This document shows positions 581 through 56,068 of a stretch of DNA of 64,000 nucleotides, piece after piece. Location: the NCBI GenBank assembly GCA_000827265.1, contig KN834750.1, positions 845,297-909,296 on the forward strand, in the 5' to 3' direction. This stretch comes from Collybiopsis luxurians FD-317 M1. Taxonomy: Eukaryota > Basidiomycota > Agaricomycetes > Agaricales > Omphalotaceae. A program made the position numbers and the translations under genes. Numbering within the stretch: position 1 is the stretch's first letter; each line of letters opens with the position of its first letter. Below the pieces are notes generated by a model, which had not been told where the DNA came from, made no database searches, and worked only from the letters and a program-made list of their open reading frames with translations.

Positions 581-921
581 TGTTGAAAGAAGTACTGAAA
601 CACTTCTAAGGACATGTACATTGTGTATATGTAATATAGACAAAAGTAGAATAGTTTTAATAGTTGGACTCTGGAGATGGGAAAAAGTTTGTGTCATTGG
701 AATATTTTAGCAGTGTGCAAAAATGTGAATACCTGTTTTCATGCCTCATGCATTTGCATGCAAATAGGACCAAACAGACCCCTAATCCTTATATGTTTAG
801 AAAGAGTCTTCAATCTGTTGACACTATAAGTTACAACCAATCTATTATACAAGTTATTATTACCAAATCAAAACTTGTTGTGATTTCAATCATTGCTGCT
901 TTAGTTGCCTGAACTTTAACA
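581..921 (+). repeat. 3' LTR of Copia A
   Basis: This 341-bp LTR starts TGTTGAAAG and ends CTTTAACA, with the purine tract directly upstream. It is the reverse complement, with scattered differences, of the two LTRs of Copia B (5322-5672 and 21586-21937). Confidence 0.85.
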
Positions 922-1350
922 GGACTACCCATTGACAAAGAACTGGCACTTTGTTCAGGAATTCTGTAAAGCTTTTGCAAAAAACCCTGATAGATATCAG
1001 AAGCCATTTTGCAAAACCTAGTGATATTTTGCATAAGGGCTGCAGTGGCCTGGCTGGCTGCTGCTGGGGTCAGAGCTGGCCAAATGGCATTGTGGCACAC
1101 TGCTTTGACCTTCCCAAAATAGTCTTCAAGTGCTTTAACTGCTTACTCAGCCTAATTTGGCGCGCACTAAGTTCTGACAGGCACATTTTGTAAAAACCTA
1201 TGATAATACTATTTTGGATTCAAAATGGATGCAAACAAATAGAAAAATCTCTCAAATATCTAATTCAGAATGTAAAATCCTTATATTTTGATAATGGCTA
1301 TTCAACAGTAGGCATTCAAATCAAATTTAGGTAAAAGAAATGAAAATCAG
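922..1350. other. Stretch without a recognisable gene
   Basis: I see no coding frame with family features here. There are short A/T-rich runs and the repeated phrase tttgcaaaa/ttttgcataa. It separates the Copia A LTR from the decayed minus-strand gene that follows. Confidence 0.5.
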
Positions 1351-4138: not shown

Positions 4139-4499
4139 GTGAGCACATGAGCCTTGAATTGCAACTCCGAGCTTTGTTGATCCCTGTCAACCTGTCAACC
4201 CCAACTGTCACTTTGCAAATTGCCTCTCAAGACTTGAATAGCATGGGTGGAGATAAGCTTTTAAATTTGAATTTTTTTTCAATTCACTTTCTGAGTGTGC
4301 TTATACATGCTGCTGTCTCTGGCAGTGTGAATGAGTGCAACTCTGGCACTTCTTTGTTTGAGGTTTGGAACCAATCGTCATGCACTGCTGTCCCTGGTGG
4401 TGTGAGATGCTCACCCAAACCTTTCTCTCACTACTTTTCCTTAGCTGCTGTTCTATGCCCTGATGTTGCTGAAGCCTCTAACTAGGTACAAGAGTCCTT

Positions 4500-5321
4500 C
4501 AAATCAATATTGATCTGGCAGATCTTCTAGAAGCTGAAGAAAAAAGGTGTATATTAACCCTTGAAGATGGCTATGAATCAATGGACAGCCAAGAAAATGT
4601 TGGCTCAGAGGACAGTAAGGAAGACAAAGAAGATATTCTGCTCAATTCAGAGTTCACACAGGAGCATTGACAACTCCTGGACAATCTTCTTTTTAGTGAA
4701 CTCTCTGAGCTGGAGGAAGAGGAAGATCAATCTACCACATATGAAGATCTCATTTCTGGCAAACTAACTGACCTTGAAAGCACTGATTCTGAAACACCCA
4801 CAACCCTGACTGCAGCTCCAACTGCATTTTCTTCTCTCCCACCACCTTCATTGCAATCCCTCACCTCTGACAGCTCCTCTCTCAGTTCTCAGCTCCTGCA
4901 TTCAAAAAAGAGGAAAAGAAAGAGACAGAATGAGAAGCAGAAAGCCAACAAGCAGAGATACAACAAGGATGTTTGCAATGCAAAGTGTGCAAAGCTATCA
5001 GATAGGCTGTACAGCAAAGGGATTGGTCAGAAGTGGGCAAATGAATTGCACATTCTTTGCCTGGATGTAGATACCTCTACCCTTCTGGTAGCTAGTACGA
5101 GCTTCCAGGGTATATGCTTGTTGAAACTTTATGCTGATTGGATACAGGAGAAGGTGTTGAAAAAGCTCAAGTATATTGACTGGGATGTGAGGTACATGCT
5201 GCATCTGCTAAAACACCTTAAATTATATTCATTTTTCTTTAAAGCTATAATGTGGTAATTTGCAACCAAAACAGCAGAGGTATTGTCTATCTCATTGGGT
5301 GACCTTGGAATCCTCACTGGA
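4500..5321 (+). pseudogene. N-terminal part of a second TET/JBP-type gene, cut off at the Copia LTR
   Basis: An open frame from about 4511 encodes an acidic region, a serine/proline-rich part and a basic KKRKRKR segment (4900-4925). A helical stretch follows, then LLVASTSFQG (to 5108), an intron ending ...gatacag, EKVLKKLKYIDWDVR (to 5200), an intron ending ...caaaacag, and GIVYLIG-TGA-PWNPHW running into the LTR at 5322. The intact copy at 15450-17364 has the matching order: basic helix, VAGWTG, DVLRISGLQLIKSDPR, an intron inside the same arginine codon in the same phase, then HHMAALLARPENW. The shared intron position is the best evidence. The dioxygenase domain is missing: the sequence ends at the Copia LTR and does not resume after 21937. 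One TGA (about 5299) stands where the other copy has arginine. Confidence 0.6.
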
Positions 5322-5672
5322 TGTTAAAGTTCAGGCAACTAAAGCAGCAATGATTGAGATCACAACAAGTTTTGGTTTGGTAATAATAACTTGTATATTA
5401 AATTGTTTGTAACTCATAGTGTCAACAGATTGAGTATTCCAACTAGACTCTTTCTAGACATATAAGGATTAGGGGTCTGTTTGGTCCTATTTGCATGCAA
5501 ACACATGAGGTGTGAAGACAGGTGTCCACATTTTTGCGCCCAGCCAAAATATGTTAATGACACAAACTTTTCCCCATCTCCAAAGTCCAACTACTAAAAC
5601 TATTCTACTTTTACCTATACTACATATACACATTGTACATGTCCTTAGAAGTGTTTCAGCATTTTTTCAACA
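5322..5672 (-). repeat. 3' LTR of Copia B
   Basis: This 351-bp LTR reads TGTTAAAG...TTTCAACA on the plus strand. The polypurine tract of the minus-strand element, read as cagccccctga on the plus strand, starts at 5673. Confidence 0.88.
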
Positions 5673-5959
5673 CAGCCCCCTGATGAAACACTTCTTCAAT
5701 TCAACATATCCTTCTAAACCATTCCTTCTTCTATCCTCCATATCTCCACAGAAGGAAGTGTAGTCACTACAACTAACACAGCCCCCTGGTGACACACTTC
5801 TTTCAATTCCTCAACATCACAGGGGGTCATTACTTCTTCACCAATCCCATCATCTGGTGGAACTTTTCCACCTTTGGCTTTACAAGGGCCTTTGTGAGCA
5901 TGTCAGCTGCATTGTCTTCTGTTGGCAGGTATCTAGGCATCAATACTCAGTGTGCTACT

Positions 5960-7884
5960 TGATCTCAGAGCCAGTAGTAGTTTAGATCAAGATGCTTCAT
6001 TCTACCATGGTGTTCAGGATTTTTTGCAACCTGAATAGCAGACTGATTATCAACCCACATATCTGAGGGAGACTTCACCAAATAACCTAATTCCATTAAT
6101 AGAGTCTGTATAGCACAGATTTCTTTGCCAGTCACATTAGCAGCAACAAATTCTGCTTCTGTAGTAGACAATGTCACTATGGGCTGTAGTTTACTGCACC
6201 AGCTGACAATTCCTGATTCAACCTTAATCATGTACCCAGTAGTGGATCTACCATTGTCCTTGTTGTCACCATGATCTGCATCACACAGAACAGTGATCAA
6301 GTTGTTGTTATCAGGATCTGGCCCATATTCCAACTGCAAATCAATAGTCCCTTTTAAATACCAAAACACATGCTTTACAGCTATCCAATGATGCATTCCA
6401 GGATTAGAGCTGAACCAGACTAATACACTAGTGGCATAAGCAATATCAGGACATGTTAATAGGGCCAGAAACAACAAGGATCCAACAGCATTCATATAGG
6501 GGATATCCATCATCTCTTCCTTTTCTGCTGGTGTTTTGGGACTGTCAGCTTTGGATAGGGTGTGTCCAGGAGTCATTGGTGTTCCAACTGGTTTGCAGTC
6601 AGTCATATCAAACTTTTCAAGTTTTTGGAGTATATACTGCTTGGAATTAAGCCATAACTTTTGTGTACTTCTATCTCTGGTGATTCCAATGCTTAACAAA
6701 AATTCAGTGTTGCCCATGTCCCGCAGCTTTAGATGCTTCTTCAATTCTTCTACAAAATGGTCTATTGCACCAGTATCTTTTGAGGCAAGAATGATATCAT
6801 CAACCCACACTGGAACAATCACTTTAAGGTCATTGCATTCATATAAATAAATACATGGATCAGAAGCAAGTTGTTTGAAACCCATTTCAACAAACACACT
6901 TGCTAATTTCTCACTCTAAAGATGGGGCAACTGCTTTAACCCATAAAGGGACTTGTTCAACCTGCATACTTTTCCTGGTCCCCCTTGCCTGAATCCCTCT
7001 GGTCGCTTCAGATAAATATCTGTATCAATATCACTATTTATAAATGCATGTGAGATATCTACTGAATGCAACTCTAAATCATCAATAGCTGCCAAAGATA
7101 AAATAACATGTAAAGTTGACCACCGCATAGTAGAGGCAAAGGTTTCCAGAAAATCAAATCCAGGTTGTTGACTAAACCCTTGTGCAACAAGTTGAGCCTT
7201 GAAGCGTTCAACAGTTCCATCAACTTTATGCTTGAGTTTGTATATCCATTTTGATCCAATTGCCACCTGTCCTGGAGGTAAATCCACAATCTCCCAAGTG
7301 CCATTAGTTAGATGTGCAATGATTTCCTCTGTCATTGCTTGTTCCCATTGATCTGCTTCTGGACTATTCAATGCCTCTTTAAAGCTCTGTGGCTTTACAA
7401 AACAATTAACAACATGTCCATACTCACCATCATTGCTCTCAGTATCATCACTTGATGAATCTGAATCTGATTGCTCAGGATTAGGATTTGGATTAAGATT
7501 AGGATGAGGAACAGCTAGTATAGGAGCAGGTGCAGGTTCAGGTGCAGGCTGTACCTTCCAATACTCACCAGGTGGCTTACAAGCTCTAACTGGTTTTCTC
7601 AGAGCAATTGGATGTTCATCTGCTGGACCTTCCTCTGGAACAACTGGTGGTACTTGACTTGGGTCATTATCAATATCATCAATACCTTCCCTCTGAGGAA
7701 GAGGGTTGGCACTCAGGGGTGTAACAAGTTCTTTTTCAGTATTTTCAGCAGGAGGGGGATTGAAAAACTGCAGGATTTTATTTTGCATCTGGGGTGGAGA
7801 AGGTACAGGTGGTGCATATGTCTTTGATGGCTGGAATTTGTACATGTAACGCTCATCAAAATCAGCTCTTTCACTAATCACCAC
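5960..7884 (-). pseudogene. Copia B reverse transcriptase and RNase H
   Basis: Two long frames (7884-6916 and 6897-5965) are in register and separated by a TAG at about 6913 in a context (LPHL-stop-SEKLA) where glutamine would fit, so CAG to TAG. The first holds a proline/acidic linker and the start of the RT (GSKWIYKLKHKVDGTVERFKAQ, LVAQGFSQ, VDISHAFIN, YLKRPEGF). The second holds the WVDDIILAS catalytic block with both aspartates kept, the YLKGT and DADHGDN blocks, and RNase H (TTEAEF, VDNQSAI). Copia RTs usually have FKARLVAQG; here the arginine is glutamine, consistent with CGA to CAA. The frame ends at a TGA after YYWL with the true C-terminus still visible beyond it. Confidence 0.85.
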
Positions 7885-7902
7885 TTTCTTTGTAACAGGA
7901 TT

Positions 7903-9126
7903 TCAAAATTTCCAAGCCTTCATTCCTTCAGGATAACCAATAAAGATACATTTCTCCATATGCCATCCCAGAGCTTCCCATTTGTCTTTCTGTACATGAA
8001 CATAAGCTACACATCCCCAGATCTGCAAATGATCAACTTTAGGTTTCTCATTATACCAGCACTCATATGGAGTTGAGTCAGACACAGCTGATGTAAGACA
8101 ACAATTCCAAACATGAACAAGTGCAGTTAGGCATTCTGTCTAAAATGTCTTTGGTAAACCTGATTCATTCAGCACCGCCATTAGCCTTTCTGCCAATGTC
8201 CTATTTGCCCTTTCAGACACTCCATTCTGCTGAGGTCTATTTCTAGCAGTCTTTTGAACTGCAATTCCATGTTCTTTACAGAAAGCAATAAATTCATTGG
8301 ACATATACTCTTCCCCTTTATCATGTCTAAGCATTTTAATTTTCCACCCAGTCATCAACTCTGCCCAAGCTTTGAACTGCTTAAAGACAGCAAATGTTTC
8401 ACTTTTCTTCTTCATTAGAAGTACAGCTCTAAAATGTGTGTAGTCATCAATAAAGGTTACCCAGTATTGATAACCACTAGGGGAGGTAACACCAACATCA
8501 TGAACATCAGAATGAACCAATTCCAGGGGCATCTTGGCTTGAGTATAAGAACTAGGAAATGGATTGGCATGCATCTTGCCAGCTAGACATGGTTCACAGA
8601 TTAGGTCCAGCATTGCTTTAGAATCAAGTTTAAAGCCCTCAACCAACTCATCTTTTGACATCTTCTGTACATTATGCAAATTGCAATGAAAGAAGTGTCT
8701 ATGCCACAGCTCCAGGTTTAGAGGCTAAGTAGACATAACATGAACACTTTCACAAGAGGTATTAACTGTATGTCCATTCAAGTAACCAACTGATCTATCA
8801 TCAACTGACGCAGTGAACAAAACAGTATTATTAAGAGAAAATTCCATAAGATCTCTATTTATGTGAACATGAAAGCCTCTATGCTTACTCAAGTAAAGAA
8901 CTGAAAGAAGATTATTATTTAATGCAGGAACATGCAGTACTCTAGTAAATTCAACATCTCTAACAACTTGTCCTTGAATGATAGGGGAAAACAGAACACT
9001 ACCAACTCCTTCAGAGTAAACTGCTCTATTATCTGCCAGTCTAACTGGAACTCTATAAGGGGTATAATTCTGAATCCAGCTTTTATGTGAGGTCATAGAG
9101 AAGTGGCACCTGTGTCTGTATTCCAT
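7903..9126 (-). pseudogene. Copia B protease C-terminal part, GAG-pre-integrase and integrase
   Basis: The frame 9126-8725 continues from the protease (IPVRLADN-like block, FTRVLHVPALNNNLLSV). The frame 8679-8140 holds the end of the HHCC zinc region (CEPCLAGK) and the integrase core: the first Asp in LVHSDVHD, the second in LRHDKGEEY and the catalytic Glu in NGVSERANRTL. The frame 8085-7903 is the integrase C-terminal part (TPYECWYNEKPKVDHLQIWGC). Breaks are a one-base frameshift at about 9093-9097, just after the protease DTGAT motif, and nonsense codons near 8137 and 7900 where tryptophan is plausible (TGG to TAG and TGG to TGA). No intact integrase can be made. Confidence 0.82.
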
Positions 9127-9571
9127 TGTACAATATCAGAAAAATTGTCTTGAAGTTGATTCAAAGAAAAAGCACTTGCACAACCAGCATTTTCAACAAC
9201 ATCTCCATCAGCCTCAACCTGGGCTCTTTTGGCTTGAATGCCTTTCTTGGGTTTAGAGCATCTATTAGCCCAATGTCCCTTCTCTCCACAGTTATAACAA
9301 TGACCCCCGGGTCTCCCCACACCTCTACTAGGCCCTCTTGATGCCATTAAACTCACTGCCTATTCAGAGACTGTTTCTGTTTCTTTTGGTTAAGCTCCTC
9401 TGCTCTAAACAATCCAAGAACAATGTCTTTATTCAGATTGTCTTGTAATAACAGATTTGCAGAGAGATGTGAATACTCCCCAGGAAGCAACCTAATAAGA
9501 GCCATTGCCTCTAACTCTTTATCCAGCATCTCAATAGTAAAGTTTTTAGGGTGCAACTATTTAATTTAATT
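9093..9571 (-). pseudogene. Copia B gag C-terminal part, zinc knuckle and protease active site
   Basis: Downstream of the transposon insertion the gag frame resumes (HPKNFTIEMLDKELEAMALIRLLP) and leads to a CCHC knuckle, CYNCGEKGHWANRC, with exact CX2CX4HX4C spacing (about 9300-9265). The protease motif WNTDTGAT follows. In the first bases next to the insertion the frame has TAA and TAG where related gags have glutamine, so both could be C-to-T changes. With the transposon and one copy of CATTGCAG removed, this frame joins the piece at 21021-21413 without a shift. Confidence 0.8.
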
Positions 9572-9579
9572 CATTGCAG
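9572..9579. repeat. 8-bp target site duplication, left (CATTGCAG)
   Basis: CATTGCAG directly abuts the left inverted repeat and recurs directly after the right one (21021-21028). Eight base pairs is the duplication length described for the Zisupton/KDZ group. Confidence 0.9.
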
Positions 9580-9909
9580 CACCTGACAGTCCCAAATAAG
9601 CCGATCAATACGTATGATTGATCGAACACATTTTCCTATGTATTCGTAGCGATATAGGTTGTTCTATAGCATTGGTCAAACATGTTAATTCCTCAGTATA
9701 TTATCTATACCTTTCCACTGAGGCTAGGACTTGGGAGCGATACTCCCTCAGCATCCCCGGCATTCTCGGCTGCAGCTTATGTGTAACGGCTCATCGGCCT
9801 TCTTTCTGTCTTTGACATCATCACCCGTACCTCGTGCACTGAACCCGTTGCCGTTGATTCCCGCTCACTGTTCCCGCCTCCCGCTCATCATCCCGCCTCC
9901 TGCTCACTG
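9580..9909 (+). repeat. Left terminal inverted repeat of the KDZ transposon
   Basis: These 330 bp match the reverse complement of 20691-21020 with about four differences that I can find (ctgcag/ccgcag, acatca/acgtca, cccgcc/cctgcc, cctgct/cccgct). Each is a CpG in one copy and TpG or CpA in the other. Apparent short ORFs in both copies are mirror images of each other and are not genes. Confidence 0.92.
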
Positions 9910-9957
9910 CTCCCGCCTCCCGCTCACTGCTCCCGCCTCCCGCTTACTGTCCCACTC
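9860..9957 (+). repeat. Subterminal tandem repeat, unit about 20 bp
   Basis: Degenerate copies of GCTCACTGCTCCCGCCTCCC follow one another at the inner edge of the left inverted repeat and just inside it. Only the outer copies are present at the right end. Such subterminal arrays often serve as transposase binding sites; that role is inferred here. From about 9958 to 10192 I see no gene or further repeat. Confidence 0.7.
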
Positions 9958-10251
9958 ATCTTCAATGAGAGCAACTATAAACAATGTATTTTATATGCTG
10001 TTATCCTGTATATATGGTTTACTATAGTAATAAGAACAGTACTGGCAGCAGTAATATAGAAAGATAAGAACAGCATCAGCAGGGCTTAGAAAGGTGCAAA
10101 ACAAGAAAGGTGCAGCCCAGAAGAACAAATCAAATATGCAGAAAGAAAGGGGAAGGCTCCAGAAAACAAAAGACCTCTAATTCTCCGCACCATTCTCCCC
10201 CCTATTGTCCCTCTCATCATCGTTCATGAGCTGATCTTCCTCCTCCTCCTC

Positions 10252-10410
10252 NNNNNNNNNNNNNNNNNNNNNNNNNNNNNNNNNNNNNNNNNNNNNNNNN
10301 NNNNNNNNNNNNNNNNNNNNNNNNNNNNNNNNNNNNNNNNNNNNNNNNNNNNNNNNNNNNNNNNNNNNNNNNNNNNNNNNNNNNNNNNNNNNNNNNNNNN
10401 NNNNNNNNNN
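10252..10410. other. Assembly gap (159 N) inside a duplicated contig end
   Basis: The 59 bases before the gap (10193-10251) and the bases after it (10411-10469) are the same sequence apart from a small indel near its start. Both run into a (TCC)n tract. The gap probably marks two contig ends that overlap and were not merged, rather than missing sequence. Confidence 0.85.
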
Positions 10411-10418
10411 TTCTCCCC

Positions 10419-13275
10419 CTACTTGTCCCTCTCATCATCGTTCATGAGCTGATCTTCCTCCTCCTCCTCCTCCTCCTCCTCCTCCTCTTCCTCCTCCTCC
10501 CCCTCCTCCCCCTCCTCCCTCTCCTCCTCCTCCTCCTCATCCTCACTTGCTATTTGTGTGGGACGCTTCTTTGGACCTGCCTGGTGGGATGCTCGTCTAC
10601 GTTTTGCTGGGTGTTCCTCCTGGCTATTGTCCTTGGAGCTGCGTTTTCGCTTATGGTGAGAGCCGCCAGCGTCACTCCTTTGTTTTCTTGCGACCTTGGT
10701 AGGGATGCTGGCCCGCTCATCATCTGAAAGCTGTTGAAGGTGCTTTTGATACTGGCGCTCACTCAGCTTGTACCAGTAGGCTTCTCCAGTCTTCCATGCT
10801 TGATATAAGGTAGAAATGTGTTCGTCATTGTCAAGATTGCGCGGGGATTTGAATGGAACGTCCTGAGGCCACCCCTCTATAGCCACCCGGTGTTTCTTCG
10901 TCATAGCTTGTCGGAAGTTCAGGTAGTTGACCGCAAGGTTTGTGTTTCCAGTTATGGATCCTTATACATGATGAGCACTGTAGCCAGGCGAGAGAGACAA
11001 AATTAACTTACCCAACCCCTCTTTGATCATTCGAACAGTCTCCGTTGCTTTTTTTGAGGTGCTCAATGCTTTCATTCCATCTATAATATCAAGATCTTAG
11101 TTTAGCTAAAAGTTGGAAAATAAAGGGTACGAACGCTTCGCAGCAACTGTTACATATGACTCAAACAGACAAAGAATCTCCCAGACCAATTTATGAAATG
11201 TATGCAGGAAAAAATCGGCCACAGGACCCCCACCGATGACAATGGGCTGCACAGTGCTTTCGAACGTTTCTCGGGTAAATATACCAAATCCAGCCACCTC
11301 AGTAGACTGGCGAAGCTCAGTGAACTGAGATAGAAATATATAAGGCTAGGTGTAAGAAGAGAATGAATTAATGAGATACCTCATCCTTAAAGCGCCGAAA
11401 GAGCTTTCCAGCACGCAAAGCACCTGTCTTGTTGGAGATTTTGGCCACCTCCTTCTTATCCTGCTGATACTGGACCAGATCCTGCATGAGCTGCGCCAAT
11501 TTATCCTTGTCCTTCTTGGCAGCTTGGAGCTCCTTGTTCTTCTTCGCCGCTTTCCGTATCTGAGTAATACTAGCCTTCTGGCCACGTCCTTTACCTACTT
11601 GGTGTCAGGAAGGAGATAGGGAAATAAACGAAGGGGATAACTTACCGGCATTCATTAGCTGGGCTTGAGCGTGAAGGATGGCATCTTGCACACTGTTGGT
11701 GCGTCTTTTGTTGAGACGGGGGGCTGAACCAAATAATCTTTTCACTTTGCTGACAGTAACGCCATGCTCCTCTGCAAGTTTGGCAAAGTCTTCATCCTGC
11801 TTGGCCTTCAAGCCCTCAATGGCCTTGACCAAGGCTTTCTGCTTGACCCTATATACTGTCGAGCGCACACCTGCCTCAGCCCTTTGGGTAGGCTGGGTGT
11901 TATCGATATGGGAGGAGGAATCATGGTCATCCACATCCTCCCACTCATTATCGTCTCTGCGGTCTGATGTCCCATGCCTTTCGGTCAATCCTGTATTGGA
12001 CCCACTGGTACTACCCTCCTGGCCATCCCTTCCCTCGGAAGTACCTGAAGAACCTTCCTTGGAATCGGTTTGGCTGGCAGCCATCTCATCATCATGCCTG
12101 GGACTTGAGTCGCCCACAGTTGTCTCATGATTGATAGTATTTGAGACGGACTGTTGAGGTGGAGATTGGGGCGAAGGTGGAGACTGAGACTGGGGTGGAG
12201 GGGGAGACTGGGATTGGGGCGGAGGGGGAGACTGAGATTGGGGTGGAAGTGGAGACTGAAGCTGGGGTGAGGATGAGGGTGGAGAGGGGTCCACCGATGT
12301 GGATAAGACTGGTCCAAATCGTGGCATCGCAGGTGGAAGACGTGTAGGCACTACAGATGGAGAACGAGGGCTGGAATCAGATGATTCACTAGCACTAGCC
12401 TGCCATTGAGATCCTGATTGAGCTGTGATTGGTCGACCTTGGAGCATAGCAAGGGAGCTCATGCTCTGCTCAGGGACATAGGAAGGACATGTGGCGTGAG
12501 GTTGAGAAACAGTCAAGTTATTAGATGATGATGGTGTGACTGGGGCTGGGGGTAGAGGAGGGTCAGAAAGTGCTGCCGCATCCACATTGTCACATAGTAC
12601 AGTATTCGCCCAAGTCAAATGGAAAGGACGAGGCTTCGAGGCTGAATCCTGGGTTGGCTGCAACGGGGTAGTATTTACATGATGGGGACCGGATGGCTGA
12701 CTTGAAGTACCGTACGCAGCCCTGTTGGAGCCAAGGCGTGCGTTTGAAATTGGTGGAGGATAGTTCTCAGTATTCGGGATGTAGAAAGGGCCTTGCCGAC
12801 CTGAACCAACCTGAGGAGGAAGGATCTGCACATTTGGGGTATGGGAAGGATGGCCATTCCTGGAAGAAAGAGGACGGAAATGAGGATAAGGAGGCTGTGA
12901 GGTTGAGACGGGAGAAGAAAAATAGGTCTCAGATGCGCGAGAATTTGATTTTTCCATTCCATCCAACGGAGGGAAGGATGTATAGGAATTAGCTGCCAGA
13001 GAGCCCTGCTGGACGCGTTGAGACTGAGAGATACCGAGAGAAGGCTGAGAACCTAAATGTGCCGGCAAGGAGCTCTGGGAGTGGCGCGGCTGGGTAAAGC
13101 CCTGATTGTGGACAATACTAGGGAGCTGGTATACCAAATTCTGAGCTGTATGATAAGGCAAGCTAGGAGAAGAGGTATGTAAATCATGCTGTGTATTTTT
13201 GGGAACAGCATGAGAAGCAGTAGCGGCTGTATTTGAGGCGGAGAAGCTATAGGTGAATCCATTATACTGAGACAT
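10419..13275 (-). CDS. TE-borne mushroom-expanded protein of unknown function
   Basis: My model is five exons: 13275-11646, 11594-11380, 11324-11135, 11080-11012 and 10960-10419, giving 881 aa with all phases compatible. Residues 1-440 are disordered and rich in S, Q and P, with PPPPQSQS-type tandem repeats. A helix-turn-helix-like segment follows (KLAEEHGVTVSKVKRLFG, about 505-525), then a basic coiled coil (about 550-600), a conserved-looking block (VAGFGIFTRETFESTVQP), NLAVNYLNFRQA...GWPQDVPFKSP, and a long acidic tail of about 25 glutamates. The order HTH-like, GF-FTRG-like, NYxNYxxA, GWPxxVPF matches, from memory, a very large mushroom family without assigned function. The exon 4/5 acceptor was chosen because the nearer AG leads to a stop. 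The C-terminus is uncertain: the duplicate sequence beyond the gap lacks this stop and would add about ten residues. Confidence 0.72.
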
Positions 13276-13478
13276 AGCTTGAAAACTGTTAATGTTAAAT
13301 TTTTAATTAATGGGTTAGAAGCCACAAACCAAAGTAGAGCCTGCAGATTTCTCTCAAACAACAGAGGGGCAAAGCGAAATGGTAAACAAGTCGCGAAGCT
13401 AAATTGCACGTGAGCAAGCAGTAACTTGAACTTAACCCATCGATTTGTTCTTGTGTCTTTTCATCTAACATTGTAGAG
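13276..13478. promoter_or_regulatory. Divergent promoter 1 of the transposon, with a CACGTG site
   Basis: 203 bp separate the two start codons. A CACGTG palindrome lies at 13407-13412 (context attgCACGTGagc). The same hexamer occurs twice in the other divergent promoter of this element. CACGTG is the core recognised by bHLH factors such as Cbf1; binding here is inferred. Confidence 0.5.
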
Positions 13479-14618
13479 ATGGCTGATAGTGGTAGTAAGT
13501 ATTTTCTTCAAACCTTTAAATAAATTTATCGCTCTCTTGATTTTAGGCAGCGTATCCAGTTCCCCACTTGAAATTGCCAACGCCACTCGTCGTGAGCGCC
13601 ATACTCGAACTGGCATTTTCTTGCTTGATGCTGAAGGTAAATATCTCCTACTAATAATGTCTGAATCTGAGGTTAGTTTTTTGTAGAAACGATTCGCATG
13701 GAGCAGCGCTTGCAAGAGGCAGAGGATGCCAGCCTTCGTGCACACCAGGCACACACAGAAATCCGAGAGGCTTTGGAGCAACAAATCCAGCTGTCACAAG
13801 AGAATCTCGGTAAAAATCTTCAAACCGCTTTTTGATATTTACTGATCCAAAAAATTAGATCGACTTCGCAGCACGATCTCCCCACCTGCTAGCCCATCAA
13901 AGACCCCACCTGCTAGTCCCTCGAAAAAGACTGCGGTACTGCAGACCCCGACCAAGCAGTCCAGGGCCTCCACTCCGGCAGTACATAGCAGTCCATTGAA
14001 GTCTCCTACATTCGAGCCCAGAACCCCTCGCACGAAGATCTGGTTTACGTCGCCCGCTCTTTCCCCTGGCTCCACGACAGATGGGACCAATAAGTTCATT
14101 CCCGGGGCTGTCTACACCCCAGTCAAGACCGAAAACCGTGGCTCCAGTCAGCGTAATGAGAGGCTGTACATTGTGTACTGGGGAAAGGACGATTGTGACG
14201 GCATTTTTACTGAATGGTATGGGGAAGGTGGTGCGCAGGAAGCAACCTCTGGCAGTGGCAACCGGTATATCCATCGTCGTTTCCTTGACCCTGAAATTGG
14301 ACGCAAAGCCTATCAAGATTGTCAAGAGACAGGCATTCTGAAAGCCTTGAAATCACCTGCAGAGAATAGTAAGATGGAATGGTTCCTGGTTATTGTCGGT
14401 GAATGTCCAGGAATCTATCATCGTCAGTATGTATTTTGAGTCCATTTTCAGTACCCGTTCACTGAAATCCAACTAGAGGGGTCATGAAGAACGGGCTAGG
14501 ATATCGCGGTGGCCAGATTTGCCGTGTAGACGGAAGTTACAGTGACGCCGAAGCCTTCTTCAAGGCTAAGAAAGAGAAGGGTGAGGTAAAAATACTTGAA
14601 TCTTGGCATATCGCGTGA
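13479..14618 (+). CDS. Coiled-coil protein with two RNase H1-N/viroplasmin-like modules
   Basis: Five exons (13479-13494, 13547-13636, 13687-13809, 13859-14426, 14477-14618) give 312 aa with consistent phases and GTAAGT/GTAAAT/GTATGT donors. Residues 1-35 are Ser-rich, 36-80 form a Glu/Gln-rich coiled coil and 81-175 are a Pro/Ser/Thr linker with (S/T)PAxSPSK repeats. Two related modules follow. Module 1 (about 178-236) begins RLYIVYWGKDDCDGIFTEW. Module 2 (about 248-298) reads WFLVIVGECPGIY...GYRGGQICRV and ends DAEAFFK. The pattern (aromatic)VVxG(x)PGIY...V.GY.GG....F....DAEAFF is that of the small domain at the N-terminus of eukaryotic RNase H1 that binds RNA/DNA hybrids and duplex RNA, also found in caulimovirus inclusion-body protein. 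No RNase H catalytic domain follows. A nucleic-acid-binding accessory role in transposition is inferred. Confidence 0.75.
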
Positions 14619-15449
14619 ACTATGTAGCCGCCCGTATTTCTGTACTGCTGTTGACATCTTCTTGATATCTTGCTCTATTGCTTAGTTGAATTGCTATCCA
14701 TGTTAACGCTCTGTACCGTTTACCAGTGCTCATATATATGTACCTTTGCTTGCAATACGATGTTGTTCATACCCCATTAATGACCCAATACAGAAAACTA
14801 ATCTCATCGAAATCCAGCCTCAGTACGATTCAAATGGGCACATTCACTTGACTCTTTACCTCTTCTTTTGCGGTCCATTATGGTTTCTGGTATTAGAGTG
14901 CTTGTGAATTGAGGATTGCAGGGAAAGAAAGTTAAATGGATGAAAAAAAGGTTGAACTGACGGTGGGAATGTGTATAGATGTCTATTTCTCTAAGTACCG
15001 CTAGGTGCACTAACAAGAGTTTTCCGGTATCGGATGTGTAAACTGGATGATGAACTATATACCATTGCAATTGTTTTAATTTGTAATGTAACACAAGACA
15101 TTCAGAGAGCAGTGAACGGCGTATGTTGCTACCAAAGTTTCACATCATTTGAACCTGACAGGACAATATCGTGAACTACCTTCATTAATGTACTGTCTCA
15201 CCCAACAAATAAGTAGAACCCAATGCACAGACATTTAGAAGCATCTGCGTAGACTCTAGAATTTCTTTGAATAAAGAGAATGTGTATACTAACAACATTA
15301 TTAGTTCTGTCGTAATTGAAGCTTCATCGTGAGTTGACTACGTTAAGTCGATGTGATTTCTTCTTGGTCTTAATAACGAGAACGAACAAAGGTTGTAAGG
15401 ACAAACGATTAGCATTTGATAAGTTAACTAGGTAAAGTAACTACGCTAT
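14619..15449. other. Convergent 3' region between two transposon genes
   Basis: 831 bases of A/T-rich sequence separate the stop of the viroplasmin-like gene from the stop of the TET gene. A short minus-strand ORF (14804-15094) has no recognisable motif. I see no RNA gene or repeat. It presumably holds the 3' ends and polyadenylation sites of both genes. Confidence 0.5.
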
Positions 15450-17364
15450 TCAAGACTCTCGTAGCATGTCCATTCCTATATTCCACAACTCCTTTCTATA
15501 AGATTGAAAAGTCTGAAGCTGCCATTTCGACGCCCGCTCCTTGAACGCTTTATCAGTCGTAAATCCATTACAATAATAACGAAGATTTCCTGCAGCGGTA
15601 AAAAATGCAATAGAGTGACGACATTCATTTGAGCTAATTGGGATGTTACCATGGCTAATCGTGGCAGACGGAAAAATAAATCCACATCCTGCGGGGAATT
15701 CGACAACAACGCCCAACTCCCACAGGATGATGTGTCCACCCTGTGTGTGGTTGAATGGCCCACAGCACCAGACGGCACACATAGCAAAGAAGACGTTCAG
15801 GAGGTCATTATGAGTTTTAGTTCCGGCACGGCCAAGATTGAGATGGCAAGCTGCAAAGCAGACGTCGTCAAAATTTCATTTCAGGTTAGGATTATGTACG
15901 TCGACAAGCATGTGGTCCAAATTCATTAGGATACTATGTACCTTCGGGTTATAGGCGAGAAGGCCACCTATTTTTCATCTTTAGGCCATCGAACAGGTAA
16001 TGCATGGGGTGATTGACTTACGATCACAAAACCTGGCGACCCTCTGCAGATAAGGATCATCTAAAAGGTCCTTCCACACTCCGGCATTATGATTCGACAT
16101 TCTAAAGTTCATTGGTTCCTGCTGGCCCTGCCCCATACTATACCCCGACGGCATACTAATATAGGTACCTCGCCGATGATCTTTACACTGAGGCGGAGGA
16201 TGAAACCTAGTCTCCGCTTGGTCGAACAGCTTGGATACCTTATCCATCACAACCTGCCAGTTCTCAGGTCGTGCAAGGAGGGCGGCCATATGGTGACCAT
16301 CGGGTGTTCGGAATAGACGAGAAATCCTACTAGTAGATTAGCATAAAAGATCAGAGTGAAATAGAATACACATACCGGGGATCACTCTTAATGAGTTGTA
16401 AGCCCGATATCCTAAGGACATCTGGAATCGACATGACGTTGGGATATGGGGTCGTACGTGGACCTGTCCACCCAGCAACCCTCCTAGGTGAGTGGGAGAT
16501 TACCTCTGCGTCTTCCTTTGCGGCCTGAATCTTCCGTAGCGCTACCTGCTTCTGCGGAATGCCCGTCTCCTGGATATGCTGCTCCCGCACTTCATTTTGT
16601 TTCCTCCGGGACCGGAAATGATCCTTCATCTTCCTCCGTTTTGCAGCAGGAAGAGCCATGTCGGGAATATATGTTGGGGTGCTGCTGATTTGACTAGCCC
16701 TGACTGGCGCCAGAAGGGAAGCGATGGTGTGGAAGCATATGGGAGATGGAATGGTCACGGGAGATGGAACGGTCACGAAAGACGGAACGGTCGTGAAAGA
16801 CGGAACGGTCGCGAAAGACGGAACGGTTGTGAGAGACGGAACGGCCATGGAAGGACTTGTGGATGAAGGGATGGCTGTGGGTGAAGGAACTGTCCCCACG
16901 AATGAGGGACAGCGGACACTGGATTCTGGAAACTCCTCAATCCTGTCACACTGTCCGGTGGTCCATGCCATTTCGGTCCGTTGATAAGATTCGGTGAAGA
17001 TCTCGCGGAGTCTGAGCTCAATGAGGATGTCGGGCCCACGCTGAGCGTGTGGATTAAACTCACGCTGGCTTCGGGTGACATGGAAGCCTACAAAAATCCA
17101 TTAGTGTAGGTCATCGTGTACGGTAAGGGTAATATTGAATGTTAATTGAAAAGCAATAGAGAAAATATTAAATAGACTTCAGTGTCCCCAGGGGCGGGGT
17201 CACCTAATGTCCGGCACCGGCACGTCGCGTTATGTGACGTTGGAGGGCAAGAAGAATGGTATATAATGAAATTTCTGGGACTTACCTAGGGAGTGTATGA
17301 TCTCTGAGGAGGTGGAGTCAAGTAGTGACTCCAACTCCATTGCCTTGCGCTTCCGAGTGGCCAT
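15450..17364 (-). pseudogene. TET/JBP-family 2-oxoglutarate/Fe(II) dioxygenase with one in-frame TGA
   Basis: TET/JBP enzymes oxidise the methyl group of 5-methylcytosine (or thymine) in DNA in the nucleus. Four exons (17364-17286, 17087-16376, 16326-16022, 15967-15450) join in frame to 538 codons. The N-terminal half has (T/A)VPS(F/P) tandem repeats (about 115-150), a basic segment AAKRRKMK and the LLARPENW block. The oxygenase domain carries the Fe ligands H418-x-D420 (THND), GGHIILWEL, VVEFPAG, the distal His471 (ISHGN) and the 2-oxoglutarate-binding Arg482 (ECRHS). The only defect is codon 396 (15876-15878): TGA between NLK and NFDD, in a run that otherwise continues in the same frame. 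The possible GT...AG around it (15899-15851) would shift the frame and remove conserved residues, so I read it as nonsense (from TGG or CGA). Alternatives are readthrough or RNA editing. It is divergent with the transposase, 116 bp apart. Confidence 0.85.
16738..16865 (-). repeat. Tandem repeat in TET exon 2, unit about 18 bp
   Basis: The DNA repeats units like ggtcacgaaagacggaac about six times, encoding TVPSF/TVPSP/AIPSS units. This is a fast-evolving linker between N-terminus and oxygenase domain and would be useful as a length marker between copies. Confidence 0.75.
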
Positions 17365-17480
17365 GGTGGTTGAGTGTAAAGTCGGCTGAGCCGAATCAAC
17401 ATTTATTCTAATTGTGATCACGTGATTTCACGTGATCCTTCATCGACGCATTTTCACCAAGTTCAGTGATTTGCACTAAA
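17365..17480. promoter_or_regulatory. Divergent promoter 2 (TET and transposase) with paired TCACGTGA palindromes
   Basis: Only 116 bp separate the start codons. Two perfect 8-bp palindromes TCACGTGA lie at 17418-17425 and 17428-17435, ten bases apart centre to centre, about one helical turn. The ten-base spacing places both on one face of the helix. The sites contain CpG at the centre, so methylation could block a bHLH factor; that is inference. Confidence 0.6.
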
Positions 17481-20400
17481 ATGGGACCCTCGTACCCTTC
17501 TCGTCCTGGACTGCGCAAGGTTATTATCCCATCATACTTACTCTCAAATGATCCCAACCGCCGTAGGACTAATCATATGCGAACCATCCGTCCTGCCGAC
17601 ATGCGATGCCTGAAAGAATGACGGAAGTCAGTCAACATACAGGTGCCCAATGTAGAAGAAATGGAGGGCTCAGAGAGTCTATACTACGATGAAGCTATTT
17701 TCGACTCTCCACATCCCTGGGAAATTCCAGTACCTAGTCATGCAGGTCAGGAATGGGTGAATATTGAGGACTCGGAGTTTCAGAAGGAATGTGAGGACAT
17801 TTATGTGAACCTTCAACAGGGGATCAGGAAAAGGTGCTGGATTAGTGCCTTTTGAAATTGTTATGAAGAAACTCATCCTATAATAGCCACTACTACGACA
17901 ATAGGGACCGCCGCGATCGAATAGAGCGCCTTGTGCAGCATTGGTTACCCCAGTATGATGATATGGCCGGTGGTTATCAGGACTGGGTGTACAACGAGGA
18001 ACACGGGTTTCGTATGCCTGAGGTCATTGAAGGGACTCCATCACTTTTGGTAAAAGTCGTGGATGTATTCAGTATGAGTTGGCATAAACTTGTACCAAGC
18101 CTCAGTGATAACTATGTTACAGGTACAACACTACGAAATATTGCCTTACCAGGGGACACTTATCAGTCTACGTCCATGATACGAGCTGGAGTATTCCCTT
18201 CATCCCCCCTCCAACATACCGTTGGTTTTTCAACACGGACACTGGATCTCTTTCACAATCTTTTTACCCGATGTCCCCGCCTGTCAATTCAGCCATTTAT
18301 TAAAGCCCTTTGTGATCTGCAAGGCCAACCATTTCAATCATCCCTCACCAGCCAGCTTTCACATGCTTACGATGCATATCTGGAGGTCAAACGTCGTGTA
18401 CACAAAAAGGTCCTGCAGAGTCTAGGCCGGGATATTCCAGATTGGCGACTGACACATACATGTCCTTGCTGCCAACTTGAGTTGAAGGAGGACCACAAGC
18501 TGCCCATCCGAATGATGGTAGCCATGGATGGAAATGACTCCCTACGTCGAGTGGAGCGCAAGACGGAAGCTGGGGATGACTCGACTGTAGAGAGCTCAGG
18601 GGCTGGATCGGTCTTGGAATGGTATGATCCTCGTGAAGGTGGGGGTGATTACTTCCTTTCACGCAGGGAAGTAGATAACTGGGCGGAGGAGAAGTGGCAT
18701 GATATCCTGCCTTTTATCCCACCCGACTCCTTCAAACGGTGGGTTTGGGAACATGGCAAATGTGAGGAGAAGTGGTTTAATGGCTCGGATACCAATACCC
18801 GAAGGATGTGGGCCAGATTCTGTGAGACTGGTTTGTTTCTTCTGGTCTGCCGCCATGGGTTGGTACTGCTCATGTGTGATATGGTCCGCTCCGGGGAGCT
18901 GTCAGTGTTGTCCTTGATATCCATGATATATGTATACTAACGTTCTATGCAGATCAAAATATCCTCTTGCCGTCCTGCATCGTTTTCTTGATGCTAGCAA
19001 GACCCAGCATGAGCGTAATGGAAAGACTGGGGCTCCGGAAGGACGTCTCACATTTTGCTACGATATTGGGTGTCGTCTGGAAAAGACGATCAGCCGCAGT
19101 CCTCTTTTGGGCTTGGCACAATATATGGGTCTGGACGCGGCTGTAGGAACCATGCACGGATATGCGCATCAACGTGCCTGCCAGCTCAATTATCTCCTAC
19201 TCTACCGTGTTGGTGCCGGCCTCGAAGATGGTGAAACTTGTGAACGATATTTCTCCAAGTCCAACGCACTCGCTACGGCCATCCGACATGCCAGCGTCTT
19301 TCATCGGCATCAAATGATCTCAGAATACGCATACCACATGGATAACTTCGAGACTTATGGAAATTTGAGCAAGTTCCTATACAACAACTACAAGCAGGCC
19401 CTCGACACCCTGAACACCATACCCTCCCTTCGATCCCACATACTTGCTGCCAAGATCACTGACCCCTCCGTCTTCTATGAGTGGTTGGTTGAAGAAGGGG
19501 AATATCTTCAGAACCTCAGTCAGACTCCCCCTGAAGAAACTCTCAAGATCGATTACTTCAACAAGCTAGTTGCCCTTCGAGAGTGTCTTGCCATTGTGAA
19601 GGAGACAAAGGAGGTTTGGCTCACCTATGTACCTGGTGAGAAGGATAAGACAAACTCCTTAGAACATGCCGCTCGCCATGCTCGTGAAAATGAGCGAAAG
19701 CTTGTTCAGGATATTCAGACCTTAGAGGATAAGCTAGAGATTCAGATTCACTGGACGGAAGGGTCGGAGGAATGGGAGGAAACAAAGAAATTGGTAAATT
19801 CGGTCAAGTATCGGAAGGCGTTGGATAAACTCGAGGGATTGCTGGTATCACGGATATTTGAGCTATCACATTTGAATGTATCAGGCACAGGTCTGTATTT
19901 TCAAAGGATTTATGCCCTTATCGCTCTAACAAATGCCCCTAAAGGCTATAAAATGCGCAAACATCTGGCAAAGGCTCTTAAAACCCGCTCCAAATCCATC
20001 CAGAGAGCTATCACAGAATACAACGCTATTGCCGCAGGTATGAAGCCACCACGTCCAGAAATCTCCTGGGATGAGGTCATGGAATACACCTTCCTGTCCG
20101 AGTTCGATATCCTCCACGATGCCCGTGAGGATGTACAGGAATATAAGTGGGCATCTTCCTCTAACCGACATCTAATGACTCAGTTCTACAAGGTCATTAG
20201 GGCAGAGGAGGAGCTATCCCGTTTACACCTGGAAATCCAGAGGCTACTCACCTACATGAAGACGGAGACCGATGAGCTTCTAGAAAAGGAACAAGAGCTA
20301 GCCGCAACAGATCCAACCCTCGCCCTTCAGGTGAGGAGATATCGACTAGAGCGGGGACGATTCAATGCTATCCATCGAAAGAAACTCTTCGCTATTCGGA

Positions 20401-20642
20401 AACTCCCTGGCTTCAACTTTCAGGAAAACAATAAATTCTTCTCTCCAGGCACGCCAACAGAGTGTAAAGGGACCCAAATTGAAATTACGGTCAACGAGGG
20501 AGAGGACAAGAGTGTTTACGACGGCAATGAGGATGAGGATGAGGATGACGATGAACAGGACAACCCTGACGAGATAAACCATGAAGTAGATGAAGTTCTC
20601 TCAGTAGCAATGGACCAGATGACATCAATTGTATTTGTCTGA
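17481..20642 (+). CDS. KDZ-family transposase, with an in-frame TGA near the 5' end
   Basis: It catalyses cut-and-paste transposition with an RNase H-fold DDE-type domain. Exons: 17481-17833, 17887-18071, 18123-18900, 18953-19890, 19945-20642, giving 983 residues, all phases consistent. Visible family blocks, in order: RRDRIERLVQHWLPQYDD, the HTCPCCQLEL zinc motif, MDGND (first Asp, 18527), CRHGL, RSGELSKYPLA, CYDIGC (second Asp), MHGYAHQRACQ and EDGETCER.FSKSN (catalytic Glu region), HLNVSGTGYKMRKH, and an acidic tail. Two introns (51 and 54 bases) are multiples of three without stops and would look like coding insertions. The first part has a TGA at 17619-17621 (...LKE-stop-RKSVN). The frame is the same on both sides, so it may be CGA to TGA. 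Alternatively translation starts further on, or an intron from 17520 to 17642 removes it. From exon 2 onward the protein is intact. Confidence 0.88.
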
Positions 20643-20690
20643 ATTTCTGTAATGTACAGTTGCTTTTTCAAAGTTACTCTATTTGGAAAA
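20643..20690. other. Spacer between transposase stop and right inverted repeat
   Basis: Only 48 bp lie between the stop codon and the right TIR, so the 3' end of the transposase mRNA must form inside the inverted repeat. Confidence 0.6.
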
Positions 20691-21020
20691 CAGTGAGCGG
20701 GAGGCAGGATGATGAGCGGGAGGCGGGAACAGTGAGCGGGAATCAACGGCAACGGGTTCAGTGCACGAGGTACGGGTGATGACGTCAAAGACAGAAAGAA
20801 GGCCGATGAGCCGTTACACATAAGCTGCGGCCGAGAATGCCGGGGATGCTGAGGGAGTATCGCTCCCAAGTCCTAGCCTCAGTGGAAAGGTATAGATAAT
20901 ATACTGAGGAATTAACATGTTTGACCAATGCTATAGAACAACCTATATCGCTACGAATACATAGGAAAATGTGTTCGATCAATCATACGTATTGATCGGC
21001 TTATTTGGGACTGTCAGGTG
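20691..21020 (-). repeat. Right terminal inverted repeat of the KDZ transposon
   Basis: These 330 bp are the reverse complement of 9580-9909 with about four CpG-type differences. The repeat ends at the plus-strand CTGTCAGGTG, followed by the target duplicate. Confidence 0.92.
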
Positions 21021-21028
21021 CATTGCAG
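21021..21028. repeat. 8-bp target site duplication, right (CATTGCAG)
   Basis: Identical to 9572-9579, confirming both ends of the transposon. Confidence 0.9.
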
Positions 21029-21413
21029 CCCCCATTCTATCACCAAAAGATTGTAATGATTCCTCCTTGGATTTGACAATTGAGCACAGCTCATCATAAG
21101 CATTGAATCTAGCACTAGGTTTCTTGGAAACATGGATTTTCTCCAATGTAGCCCACATTGCTACTGGATCATCAAAACACTTTTTTAAGTGTTGTTTCTG
21201 ATCAGATCCCACACACAGATATATTTCACCTGCAGCCCTCATTACTTTCTCCTCCCATTTTGAGCCTTCTTCTTCTTTTGAGGATTTGACCTCTTTTCCA
21301 ATAACAAGCTGCCAATAGCCTCAACTTATCAGCCATGCTTGCATGTCACCACACCATTCATTGTAATTGGAGTTATCCAATACTTTGATTTTAGAAAGAG
21401 ATGATTCAGCCAT
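21021..21413 (-). pseudogene. Copia B gag, N-terminal part
   Basis: ATG at 21413 starts MAESSLSKIKVLDNSNYNEW, typical of the Copia gag N-terminus (SKI..L...NY..W). WLIS-TGA-GYWQLV interrupts it near 21330 where arginine would suit. The frame continues (MWATLEKIHVSKKPSARFNAYDEL, ESLQSFGDRMGAAM) to the transposon insertion point. The remainder of gag is at 9571 and downward. Confidence 0.82.
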
Positions 21414-21585
21414 GGTAATAGATGAGTGTTTGATAATAAAGCCAACAAAAGCAAAAGCACTGTGCAGTTAACAATAACTTGCACTAATAACAACAATGAC
21501 AGTAAATGTCACAAAAGCCAACAACAAAGCAATCAAGAGTAATCAACAAACACTGTGCAATTTTTAAAGGCCGGGGCCCATAACC
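21414..21585 (-). other. Copia B leader with primer-binding region
   Basis: Between the 5' LTR and the gag start, the minus strand reads ggttatgggcccc directly after the LTR end. This is the expected place for the primer-binding site. The same sequence flanks the isolated LTR at 52710-53149. Confidence 0.55.
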
Positions 21586-21937
21586 TGTTAAAGTTCAGGC
21601 AACTAAAGCAGCAATGATTGAGATCACAACAAGTTTTAGTTTGGTAATAATAACTTGTATATTAGATTGTTTGTAACTCGTAGTGTCAACAGATTGAGTA
21701 TTCCAACTAGACTCTTTCTAGACATATAAGGATTAGGGGTTTGTTTGGTCCTATTTGCATGCAGATGCATGAGGCGTGAAAACAGGTGTCCACATTTTTG
21801 TGCCCAGCCAAAATATGTTAATGACACAAACTTTTCCTCATCTCCAAAGTCCAACTACTAAAACTATTCTACTTTTGTCTATACTACATATACACATTGT
21901 ACATGTCCTTAGAAGTGTTTCAGCACTTCTTTCAACA
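21586..21937 (-). repeat. 5' LTR of Copia B
   Basis: This 352-bp LTR reads TGTTAAAG...TTTCAACA on the plus strand. About 15 transitions and one indel separate it from the 3' LTR; I found no transversion. Confidence 0.88.
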
Positions 21938-53456: not shown

Positions 53457-53510
53457 GTATGTTTCTGTGGTCATTTTTTTTTCGTATTTGAATACGACTT
53501 GCTTTTCAGA

Positions 53511-56028: not shown

Positions 56029-56068
56029 GGCTTAATGAGTAGACGCTGAGAAATAGCCGCTCAGTGTA
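56029..56068. promoter_or_regulatory. 40-bp divergent gap between two start codons
   Basis: Start codons of the auxilin-like (-) and SLP1-like (+) genes are 40 bases apart, too close for two separate core promoters with untranslated leaders. Transcription of each must begin at the edge of, or inside, the other gene. The next upstream in-frame codon block of the plus gene hits a TAG within 15 bases, so no earlier start exists. Confidence 0.6.

What the first reader, a model, noticed from the sequence alone, without database searches (positions are those of the whole stretch)
9580..21020. Complete KDZ transposon carrying a four-gene cassette with a TET/JBP 5mC oxygenase
Seen: 330-bp inverted repeats, an 8-bp target duplication (CATTGCAG), a KDZ transposase and three passenger genes in two divergent pairs. 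Known: linkage of KDZ transposases with TET/JBP genes in basidiomycetes (Iyer et al. 2014). Inference: the cassette is a transposon with its own DNA-demethylation function plus two further proteins, perhaps to escape host CpG methylation. The defined ends and gene order give a full unit for comparison.
Basis: partly seen in the sequence, partly recalled or inferred. Interest (0 to 1): 0.9.

Follow-up and report, generated by a model that had tools for sequence, protein, structure and literature searches.

The report
Four-gene KDZ transposon with TET-like gene
This is a jumping gene of a fungus that carries, besides its own cutting enzyme, a DNA-demethylase-like gene and two helper genes; relatives in the same genome keep the same set, although the demethylase gene is broken in this copy.

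Summary
Window 9580-21020 is a transposon with 330-bp inverted repeats (4 mismatches), an exact 8-bp target duplication and a continuous empty site inside a copia gag. Its four genes form two divergent pairs: A(-)/B(+) and TET-like(-)/KDZ transposase(+). The grouping is not accidental: five copies in this genome with both ends and 8-bp duplications (window included) keep A and B in the same order and orientation; the TET catalytic part is in 4 of 5, KDZ in 4 of 5. B carries two RNase H1 N-terminal ("viroplasmin")-like domains. A second, same-strand KDZ class here also links KDZ, TET and such a domain.

The self-demethylation inference is weakened. This copy's TET has an in-frame stop before the catalytic residues; none of the 5 TET copies examined is both open and complete. 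The copy is CpG-rich (o/e 0.69) inside a CpG desert (0.05-0.07). Sister C34 lost CpGs massively (246 of 564 cytosines against 2 of 58 the other way) while other C>T changes are symmetric (74 v 63). Recent insertion, or a lineage kept unmethylated in trans, explains this better than its own TET. A new variant of a known kind (TET-carrying KDZ elements).

The parts
9572..9579 (.). left target-site duplication CATTGCAG
   Evidence: identical to 21021-21028; empty site continuous
9580..9909 (+). left terminal inverted repeat, starting CACCTGACAGTCCC
   Evidence: 330 bp, 4 mismatches to the right arm, all at CpG
9859..9950 (.). subterminal 20-bp-spaced repeats (CCCGCTCACTG...), possible transposase-binding repeats (inferred)
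   Evidence: direct repeats, motif positions
10252..10410 (.). run of N flanked by a 58-bp repeat, probable assembly artefact
10420..13275 (-). gene A, 881 aa, 5 exons, Ser/Pro-rich N-terminus plus a conserved region about residues 470-800; no Pfam domain at cut-off
   Evidence: model; homologues at C34, C7, C12, C1, C26, C78, C72; Pfam
13276..13478 (.). shared upstream region of A and B (possible bidirectional promoter, inferred)
   Evidence: gene models
13479..14620 (+). gene B, 312 aa, 5 exons, two RNase H1 N-terminal (viroplasmin)-like domains
   Evidence: model; alignment; hhalign; C1 homologue PF01693 17.2 bits, cut-off 21
15450..17364 (-). TET/JBP-like 2OG oxygenase gene, 4 exons; in-frame TGA at codon 396, before HxD, H and R
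   Evidence: model; stop; residues in alignments
17365..17480 (.). shared upstream region of TET and KDZ (possible bidirectional promoter, inferred)
   Evidence: gene models
17481..20642 (+). KDZ transposase gene, 4 exons; in-frame TGA at codon 47
   Evidence: PF18758 220.2 bits; CxC1 25 bits, cut-off 26.9; stop
20691..21020 (-). right terminal inverted repeat
21021..21028 (.). right target-site duplication CATTGCAG
5322..21937 (-). host copia element into which the transposon inserted (LTRs 5322-5672 and 21586-21937, 95.7% identical)
   Evidence: gag reading frame

Best explanation
A cut-and-paste KDZ-superfamily transposon (KDZ protein domain, long inverted repeats, 8-bp target duplications, as reported for Zisupton-type elements) whose four genes are one old, co-inherited cassette. 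Shown: ends, duplications, gene order, recurrence in diverged bounded relatives, past amino-acid constraint on all four proteins. Inferred: KDZ cuts and pastes; the TET-like oxygenase, when open, served to keep or make copies unmethylated so that they could be expressed or excised; B binds nucleic acid (RNA:DNA hybrid or double-stranded RNA) through two RNase H1 N-terminal-like domains, and A is a structural or DNA-binding partner. The window copy itself is a recent insertion, no longer self-sufficient on paper; any TET help it gets must come in trans, for example from the TET-like genes of the second KDZ class. Its CpG richness reflects recent arrival and a lineage that was not CpG-decaying, rather than its own TET.
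For: TIR, TSD and empty site. TIR and TSD in four further gene-bearing copies: C7 (CAGTTCGA), C12 (CAATTGAT), C1 (CACTGCGG), C26 (ACAGAGCT). Same order and orientation: A, B in 5 of 5; TET catalytic part in 4 of 5 (C1 keeps an N-terminal remnant in place); KDZ in 4 of 5 (not C26). pN well below pS, window v. C7: A 0.347/0.794, B 0.347/0.833, TET 0.317/0.804, KDZ 0.204/0.817. KDZ 220 bits. Second KDZ class: Cauli_VI matches lie within 9 kb of KDZ at 6 of 13 loci, three of them beside KDZ-TET pairs; the C48 two-exon piece scores 38.9 bits, cut-off 21. CpG: window to C34 246/564 v. 2/58 (Fisher p 4e-11); other C>T 74/2974 v. 63/3130 (p 0.23); all 4 TIR mismatches at CpG.
Against: No transposition, expression or methylation data. 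The TET identity rests on motif and bridging similarity: the window protein gives no Tet_JBP match, the one Tet_JBP match of this genome (C26:238489, below cut-off) shows no similarity to it, and PDB searches found no TET. None of 5 TET copies with the catalytic region is open and complete: in-frame stops in window, C34, C12 and, by the simplest splice, C7; Arg replaced in C26. C1 has stop-free matched KDZ exons without the TET catalytic part, so TET may be dispensable. B's two domains do not match each other (0.3%) and its profile found no RNase H1 chain in the PDB. A's role is unknown; no HMG match.
Confidence: 0.7

Rival explanations
1. One reading: the element protects itself in cis; its own TET keeps its DNA unmethylated and thereby CpG-rich.
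For: CpG o/e 0.69 within flanks of 0.05-0.07; the lineage lost few CpGs while sister C34 lost most.
Against: The TET gene here has an in-frame stop before the catalytic core, also present in C34. C1 without the catalytic part is CpG-rich, though in CpG-normal flanks. All 4 TIR mismatches are CpG transitions, so decay has begun.
Confidence: 0.1
2. Punctuated hypermutation: copies are hit by a RIP-like CpG-directed burst. C34 was hit, the window copy and the C148 end were not yet; no protection need be invoked.
For: CpG loss in C34 is massive and equal in coding (189/422) and non-coding (57/128) sequence, while non-CpG changes are symmetric; the copia host has CpG o/e 0.06 with LTRs still 95.7% alike.
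Against: No single burst has been observed; graded CpG values (0.08, 0.38, 0.58, 0.69, 0.81) fit gradual decay as well. [quoted passage not shown]
Confidence: 0.35
3. The oxygenase acts on another base (6mA, or pyrimidine hypermodification) and has no role in 5mC removal.
For: The protein is far from Pfam Tet_JBP; Kojima 2025 reports 6mA activity for CcTET and leaves other activities open for diverged types (sections read).
Against: The element family lives under strong CpG-specific decay, as expected of 5mC; HxD and the second His are kept in the four aligned copies.
Confidence: 0.2
4. The grouping is accidental: KDZ inserted beside, or was joined to, unrelated genes.
For: C20 has KDZ and a right end without matches to the others within about 4 kb; A-only and TET-only loci exist.
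Against: Same order in 5 of 5 TIR/TSD-bounded gene-bearing copies, diverged to about 28-73% protein identity.
Confidence: 0.03

Closest known systems
TET+ Zisupton transposons (KDZ) of Auriculariales and Agaricus bisporus; Kojima 2025, PMC12730594
   Same: KDZ transposase plus TET gene inside a complete element; Zisupton makes 8-bp TSDs and has TIRs; HxD motif as in the AG type, which that paper reports for Kyakuja and Zisupton
   Different: Accessory genes A and B in conserved order are not mentioned in the sections read, and the words viroplasmin, RNase H and accessory do not occur in its main text; transposase phylogeny not run here
TET+ Kyakuja transposons (Laccaria and others; Kojima 2025)
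   Same: KDZ superfamily, AG-type TET, CA..TG termini
   Different: Kyakuja: 7-bp TSD and no TIRs; here 8-bp TSD and TIRs of 70-330 bp in the five bounded copies. The second, same-strand KDZ class in this genome may be Kyakuja (not tested)
KDZ-TET/JBP elements of Iyer et al. 2014 (recalled; not held)
   Same: Linkage of KDZ with TET/JBP and, as I recall the abstract, additional proteins including a divergent HMG domain
   Different: Gene A gave no HMG match with a small profile; I do not recall an RNase H1 N-terminal-like gene being reported
RNase H1 N-terminal (hybrid-binding, Cauli_VI) domain proteins
   Same: Two domains with the same order of conserved residues; hhalign 67% and 76%
   Different: No RNase H catalytic domain found in the 312-aa protein by Pfam; the window protein itself gives no PF01693 match

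Membership tests
KDZ superfamily transposon | KDZ transposase domain (PF18758) | tested here: met
   220.2 bits, cut-off 26.6
KDZ superfamily transposon | bounded by TIRs with target-site duplication | tested here: met
   330-bp TIR, 8-bp TSD, empty site; four more gene-bearing copies
Zisupton-type KDZ | 8-bp TSD and TIRs (as stated by Kojima 2025) | tested here: met
   5 of 5 gene-bearing bounded copies
Zisupton-type KDZ | transposase clusters with Zisupton in phylogeny | not tested
   no named reference transposases at hand; protein database switched off
Kyakuja-type KDZ | 7-bp TSD, no TIRs (Kojima 2025) | tested here: not met
   8-bp TSD, long TIRs
TET/JBP dioxygenase | HxD...H iron ligands and downstream Arg | tested here: met
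   present in the window frame, after the stop; HxD and H invariant in alignments A1 and A4; Arg kept in window, C7 and C12, replaced in C34 and C26
TET/JBP dioxygenase | match to the Tet_JBP model (PF12851) | tested here: not met
   no match for the window protein; of four related proteins of this genome, best 14.3 bits to Tet_JBP (C128) and 24.0 bits to 2OG-FeII_Oxy_3 (C48), below cut-offs 34.9 and 27
TET/JBP dioxygenase | double-stranded beta-helix fold | tested here: inconclusive
   single-sequence model pLDDT 35
TET/JBP dioxygenase | oxidation of 5mC | not testable with these tools
   needs biochemistry; this copy carries a stop
RNase H1 N-terminal domain protein (gene B) | Pfam PF01693 over cut-off | tested here: not met
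   window: none; C1 homologue 17.2, C12 13.7, C7 9.2 bits, cut-off 21
RNase H1 N-terminal domain protein (gene B) | profile similarity over the whole domain | tested here: met
   hhalign probability 67% and 76% v. three controls 0.1%; small profiles, reference sequences recalled; but the two domains do not match each other (0.3%) and the PDB profile search found no RNase H1
HMG-domain accessory protein (gene A) | similarity to HMG box | tested here: not met
   hhalign probability 0.1% with a five-sequence recalled profile; weak test

The most novel reading that the evidence does not exclude
The cassette is a targeting module: B, through its paired RNase H1 N-terminal-like domains, reads RNA:DNA hybrids (R-loops or silencing-RNA hybrids) on transposon copies and brings the TET-like oxygenase there, so that a transposon carries its own RNA-guided-like demethylation system. 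KDZ, TET and such a domain stay linked in two KDZ classes of this genome for that reason.
Probability: 0.1. Interest if true: 0.87.

Novelty: new variant of a known kind. Interest (0 to 1): 0.6.

Why it matters
TET-carrying fungal transposons are leading candidates for mobile elements that fight DNA methylation, but their function is unproven (Kojima 2025, section read). This genome supplies bounded units with a fixed four-gene layout, a partner gene B linked to TET in two KDZ classes, and a pair of sister copies of which one lost most CpGs and the other did not while other sites changed equally. That makes the question (does TET shield its carriers, in cis or in trans, and does B aim it?) directly testable.

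Tried and rejected
Accidental grouping: rejected by recurrence. Cis self-protection: disfavoured. A first reading that C7 keeps an open TET was withdrawn on checking (by the simplest splice its third exon carries a stop); for that reason the confidence of the best explanation went from 0.75 to 0.7 and the novel case from 0.12 to 0.1. KDZ lineage tree: not run. Gene A as HMG protein: no support, weak test. PDB searches for TET gave nothing; for A one weak repeat match, judged chance; for B 28 matches, none an RNase H1, best E 0.1. AlphaFold jobs on the TET exon (pLDDT 35) and on B domain 1 (pLDDT 44) were too poor, so no fold search was made. dN/dS could not be given because synonymous sites are saturated; pN and pS are quoted, from tblastn pieces that include some intron read-through, which raises pN. 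The binomial estimate treats copies of one family as independent and so overstates; its 73 KDZ positions were taken by hand from the 96 rows. CcTET residues Gly331 and Asp337 were not assigned because no CcTET sequence was available.
Full report
1. The element. Window 9580-21020 is bounded by 330-bp inverted repeats with 4 mismatches and by CATTGCAG on both sides. Joining the flanks across one copy gives a continuous copia gag frame with two stops of its own. The copia host has LTRs at 5322-5672 and 21586-21937, 95.7% identical. The N run 10252-10410 lies between two 58-bp repeats that are 95% alike and is probably an assembly artefact next to the end of gene A; the C148 sequence shows one copy before its own 10.8-kb gap.

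2. The genes (models, by eye and comparison). A(-) 10420-13275, 881 aa, open. B(+) 13479-14620, 312 aa, open. TET-like(-) 15450-17364, one in-frame TGA at codon 396, before HxD, H and R. KDZ(+) 17481-20642, one TGA at codon 47, before the recognised domains. A/B and TET/KDZ are divergent pairs with 203 and 116 bp between starts. Pfam: KDZ 220.2 bits; nothing at cut-off for A, B or TET.

3. Is the grouping real? Own-genome searches with each protein and fetched loci give this table. Bounded by TIR and 8-bp TSD: window; C7 435629-446543; C12 747921-758945 (reversed); C1 2807067-2816311; C26, 6857 bp (reversed). A and B are in 5 of 5, in the same order and orientation; the TET catalytic part in 4 of 5 (C1 has only an N-terminal remnant in place); KDZ in 4 of 5 (not C26). 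B in C26 was found only with the C1 protein as query (the window protein missed it). Not bounded on both sides: C34 (left TIR, A, B, TET, then other sequence; no KDZ in the stretch fetched), C78 (A and TET; no B match), C6 (KDZ and TET, divergent; no A or B match), C20 (KDZ and a right end; no match to the others within about 4 kb), C18 (TET), C72 (A). C39 (A), C93 and C115 (KDZ) are known from searches only. C148 has a left end and then a gap. Gene-less derivatives: C83, 748 bp with TSD ATTCAGAG, and C125, 1838 bp, flanked by T runs so its TSD says nothing. The terminal pattern CACCTGAYARTCCC occurs 17 times, against 1 for the reversed control. Amino-acid changes are well below synonymous ones for all four genes between window and C7 (synonymous sites saturated). 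No copy that I examined has all four genes open.

4. What the passenger proteins are. TET-like: of six further loci fetched, five (L034-L038) match the window TET at E 5e-25 to 1e-33; the sixth (L039), the only Tet_JBP match of this genome and below its cut-off, does not. Of four of the five scanned with Pfam, C48 reached 24.0 bits with 2OG-FeII_Oxy_3 (cut-off 27), C128 14.3 and C180 12.6 bits with Tet_JBP (cut-off 34.9), and C15 nothing. HxD and the second His are invariant in the alignments. Arg is kept in window, C7 and C12 and replaced in C34 and C26. Frames: in-frame stops in window, C34, C12 and, by the simplest splice, C7; in C26 the catalytic exon is open. So 0 of 5 looks open and complete. 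HxD places it with AG-type rather than PE-type enzymes as defined by Kojima 2025 (section read). B: two domains, each matching an RNase H1 N-terminal profile over its length (67%, 76%; three controls 0.1%). Against this, the two domains do not match each other (0.3%), and the PDB profile search found no RNase H1. Homologues score 17.2 (C1), 13.7 (C12) and 9.2 (C7) bits with PF01693, cut-off 21. A: conserved but unassigned; Pfam, PDB and HMG comparisons give nothing convincing.

5. A second class. KDZ domains are common (96 exon matches, a lower bound). Four KDZ-TET pairs lie on one strand with starts 5.6-6.0 kb apart (C48, C91, C98, C12:1.05 Mb). A PF01693 search gave 15 exon matches at 13 loci, many below the cut-off one by one; 6 of the 13 lie within 9 kb of a KDZ match, and three of these are 2.2-2.5 kb from the TET of C48, C91 and C98 (3 of those 4 pairs). 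Joined, the C48 exon pieces score 38.9 bits. So KDZ, TET and an RNase H1 N-terminal-like gene travel together in two arrangements. The loci of this class look like copies of one family, hence not independent evidence.

6. CpG decay. Element o/e 0.69; its 2-kb flanks 0.05 and 0.07; C34 0.08; C7 0.38 (flanks 0.70, 0.96); C12 0.58 (1.02, 0.94); C1 0.81 (0.96, 1.08). Window v. C34 over the shared 7.6 kb: 408 substitutions, 386 transitions. At window CpG cytosines C34 has T in 246 of 564; the reverse is 2 of 58. Other C>T changes are 74 of 2974 and 63 of 3130; Fisher p 4e-11 and 0.23. The reverse count rests on the few CpGs that C34 kept. C34 loss is the same in coding (189/422) and non-coding (57/128) sequence. 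Window v. C148 end: 6/42 and 3/36 at CpG, 1/244 and 1/247 elsewhere. All 4 TIR mismatches are at CpG, among 21 CpG positions. Reading: the two sister lineages share the same time since their split, but only C34 was heavily CpG-decaying; the window copy has just begun. Whether C34 was hit gradually or in a burst is open. Because TET is broken in both, own-TET protection is not the likely explanation; help in trans, for example from TET-like genes of the second class whose matched exons are open (C48, C128, C180), cannot be excluded.

7. Known or new. Kojima 2025 (PMC12730594; abstract, sections 4, 18, 22, 23, 24 and 34 and found passages read) describes TET+ Kyakuja (7-bp TSD, no TIRs) and TET+ Zisupton elements; this one has the Zisupton-type ends. 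The main text of that paper does not contain viroplasmin, RNase H or accessory. A library search needing three of viroplasmin, transposon, Basidiomycota and TET found 224 papers; of the 12 listed none holds viroplasmin, and the other 212 were not seen. Iyer 2014 was not available and may describe some of these genes. Verdict: new variant of a known kind.

Noticed in passing
G000 C48:259800-274000 (L044, L045), C98:64000-71500 (L046), C91: Second KDZ class with KDZ, TET and an RNase H1 N-terminal-like gene all on one strand, plus a further Ser/Asn-rich open frame upstream of them at C48 and C98.
   Followed up: partly
window 1-9571, 21029-53000 v. 53000-64000: Retroelement region almost without CpG (o/e 0.02-0.23 in most 4-kb steps) beside ordinary genes with CpG o/e about 0.9: sign of strong CpG-directed C>T decay of repeats, although Kojima 2025 says hypermutation is not detected in Agaricomycotina.
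   Followed up: partly
window 5322-21937: Copia LTRs differ by 14 substitutions, all transitions, and one gap; the copia has only 12 CpGs.
   Followed up: yes
window 10193-10469: 58-bp repeat flanking an N run in a CCT-rich stretch, probable assembly artefact.
   Followed up: partly
window 53864-62773: Host genes by eye (no family search): UBA/TPR (auxilin-like), SUN-domain, Msp1-like AAA ATPase, PWI/RBM25-like.
   Followed up: no
C83:69809-70556; C125:59698-61535: Short gene-less TIR derivatives (MITE-like) of this family.
   Followed up: yes
C1:2807067-2816311 (L030, L031): Bounded copy with stop-free matched KDZ exons and the highest CpG content of the copies measured, but without the TET catalytic part.
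   Followed up: partly
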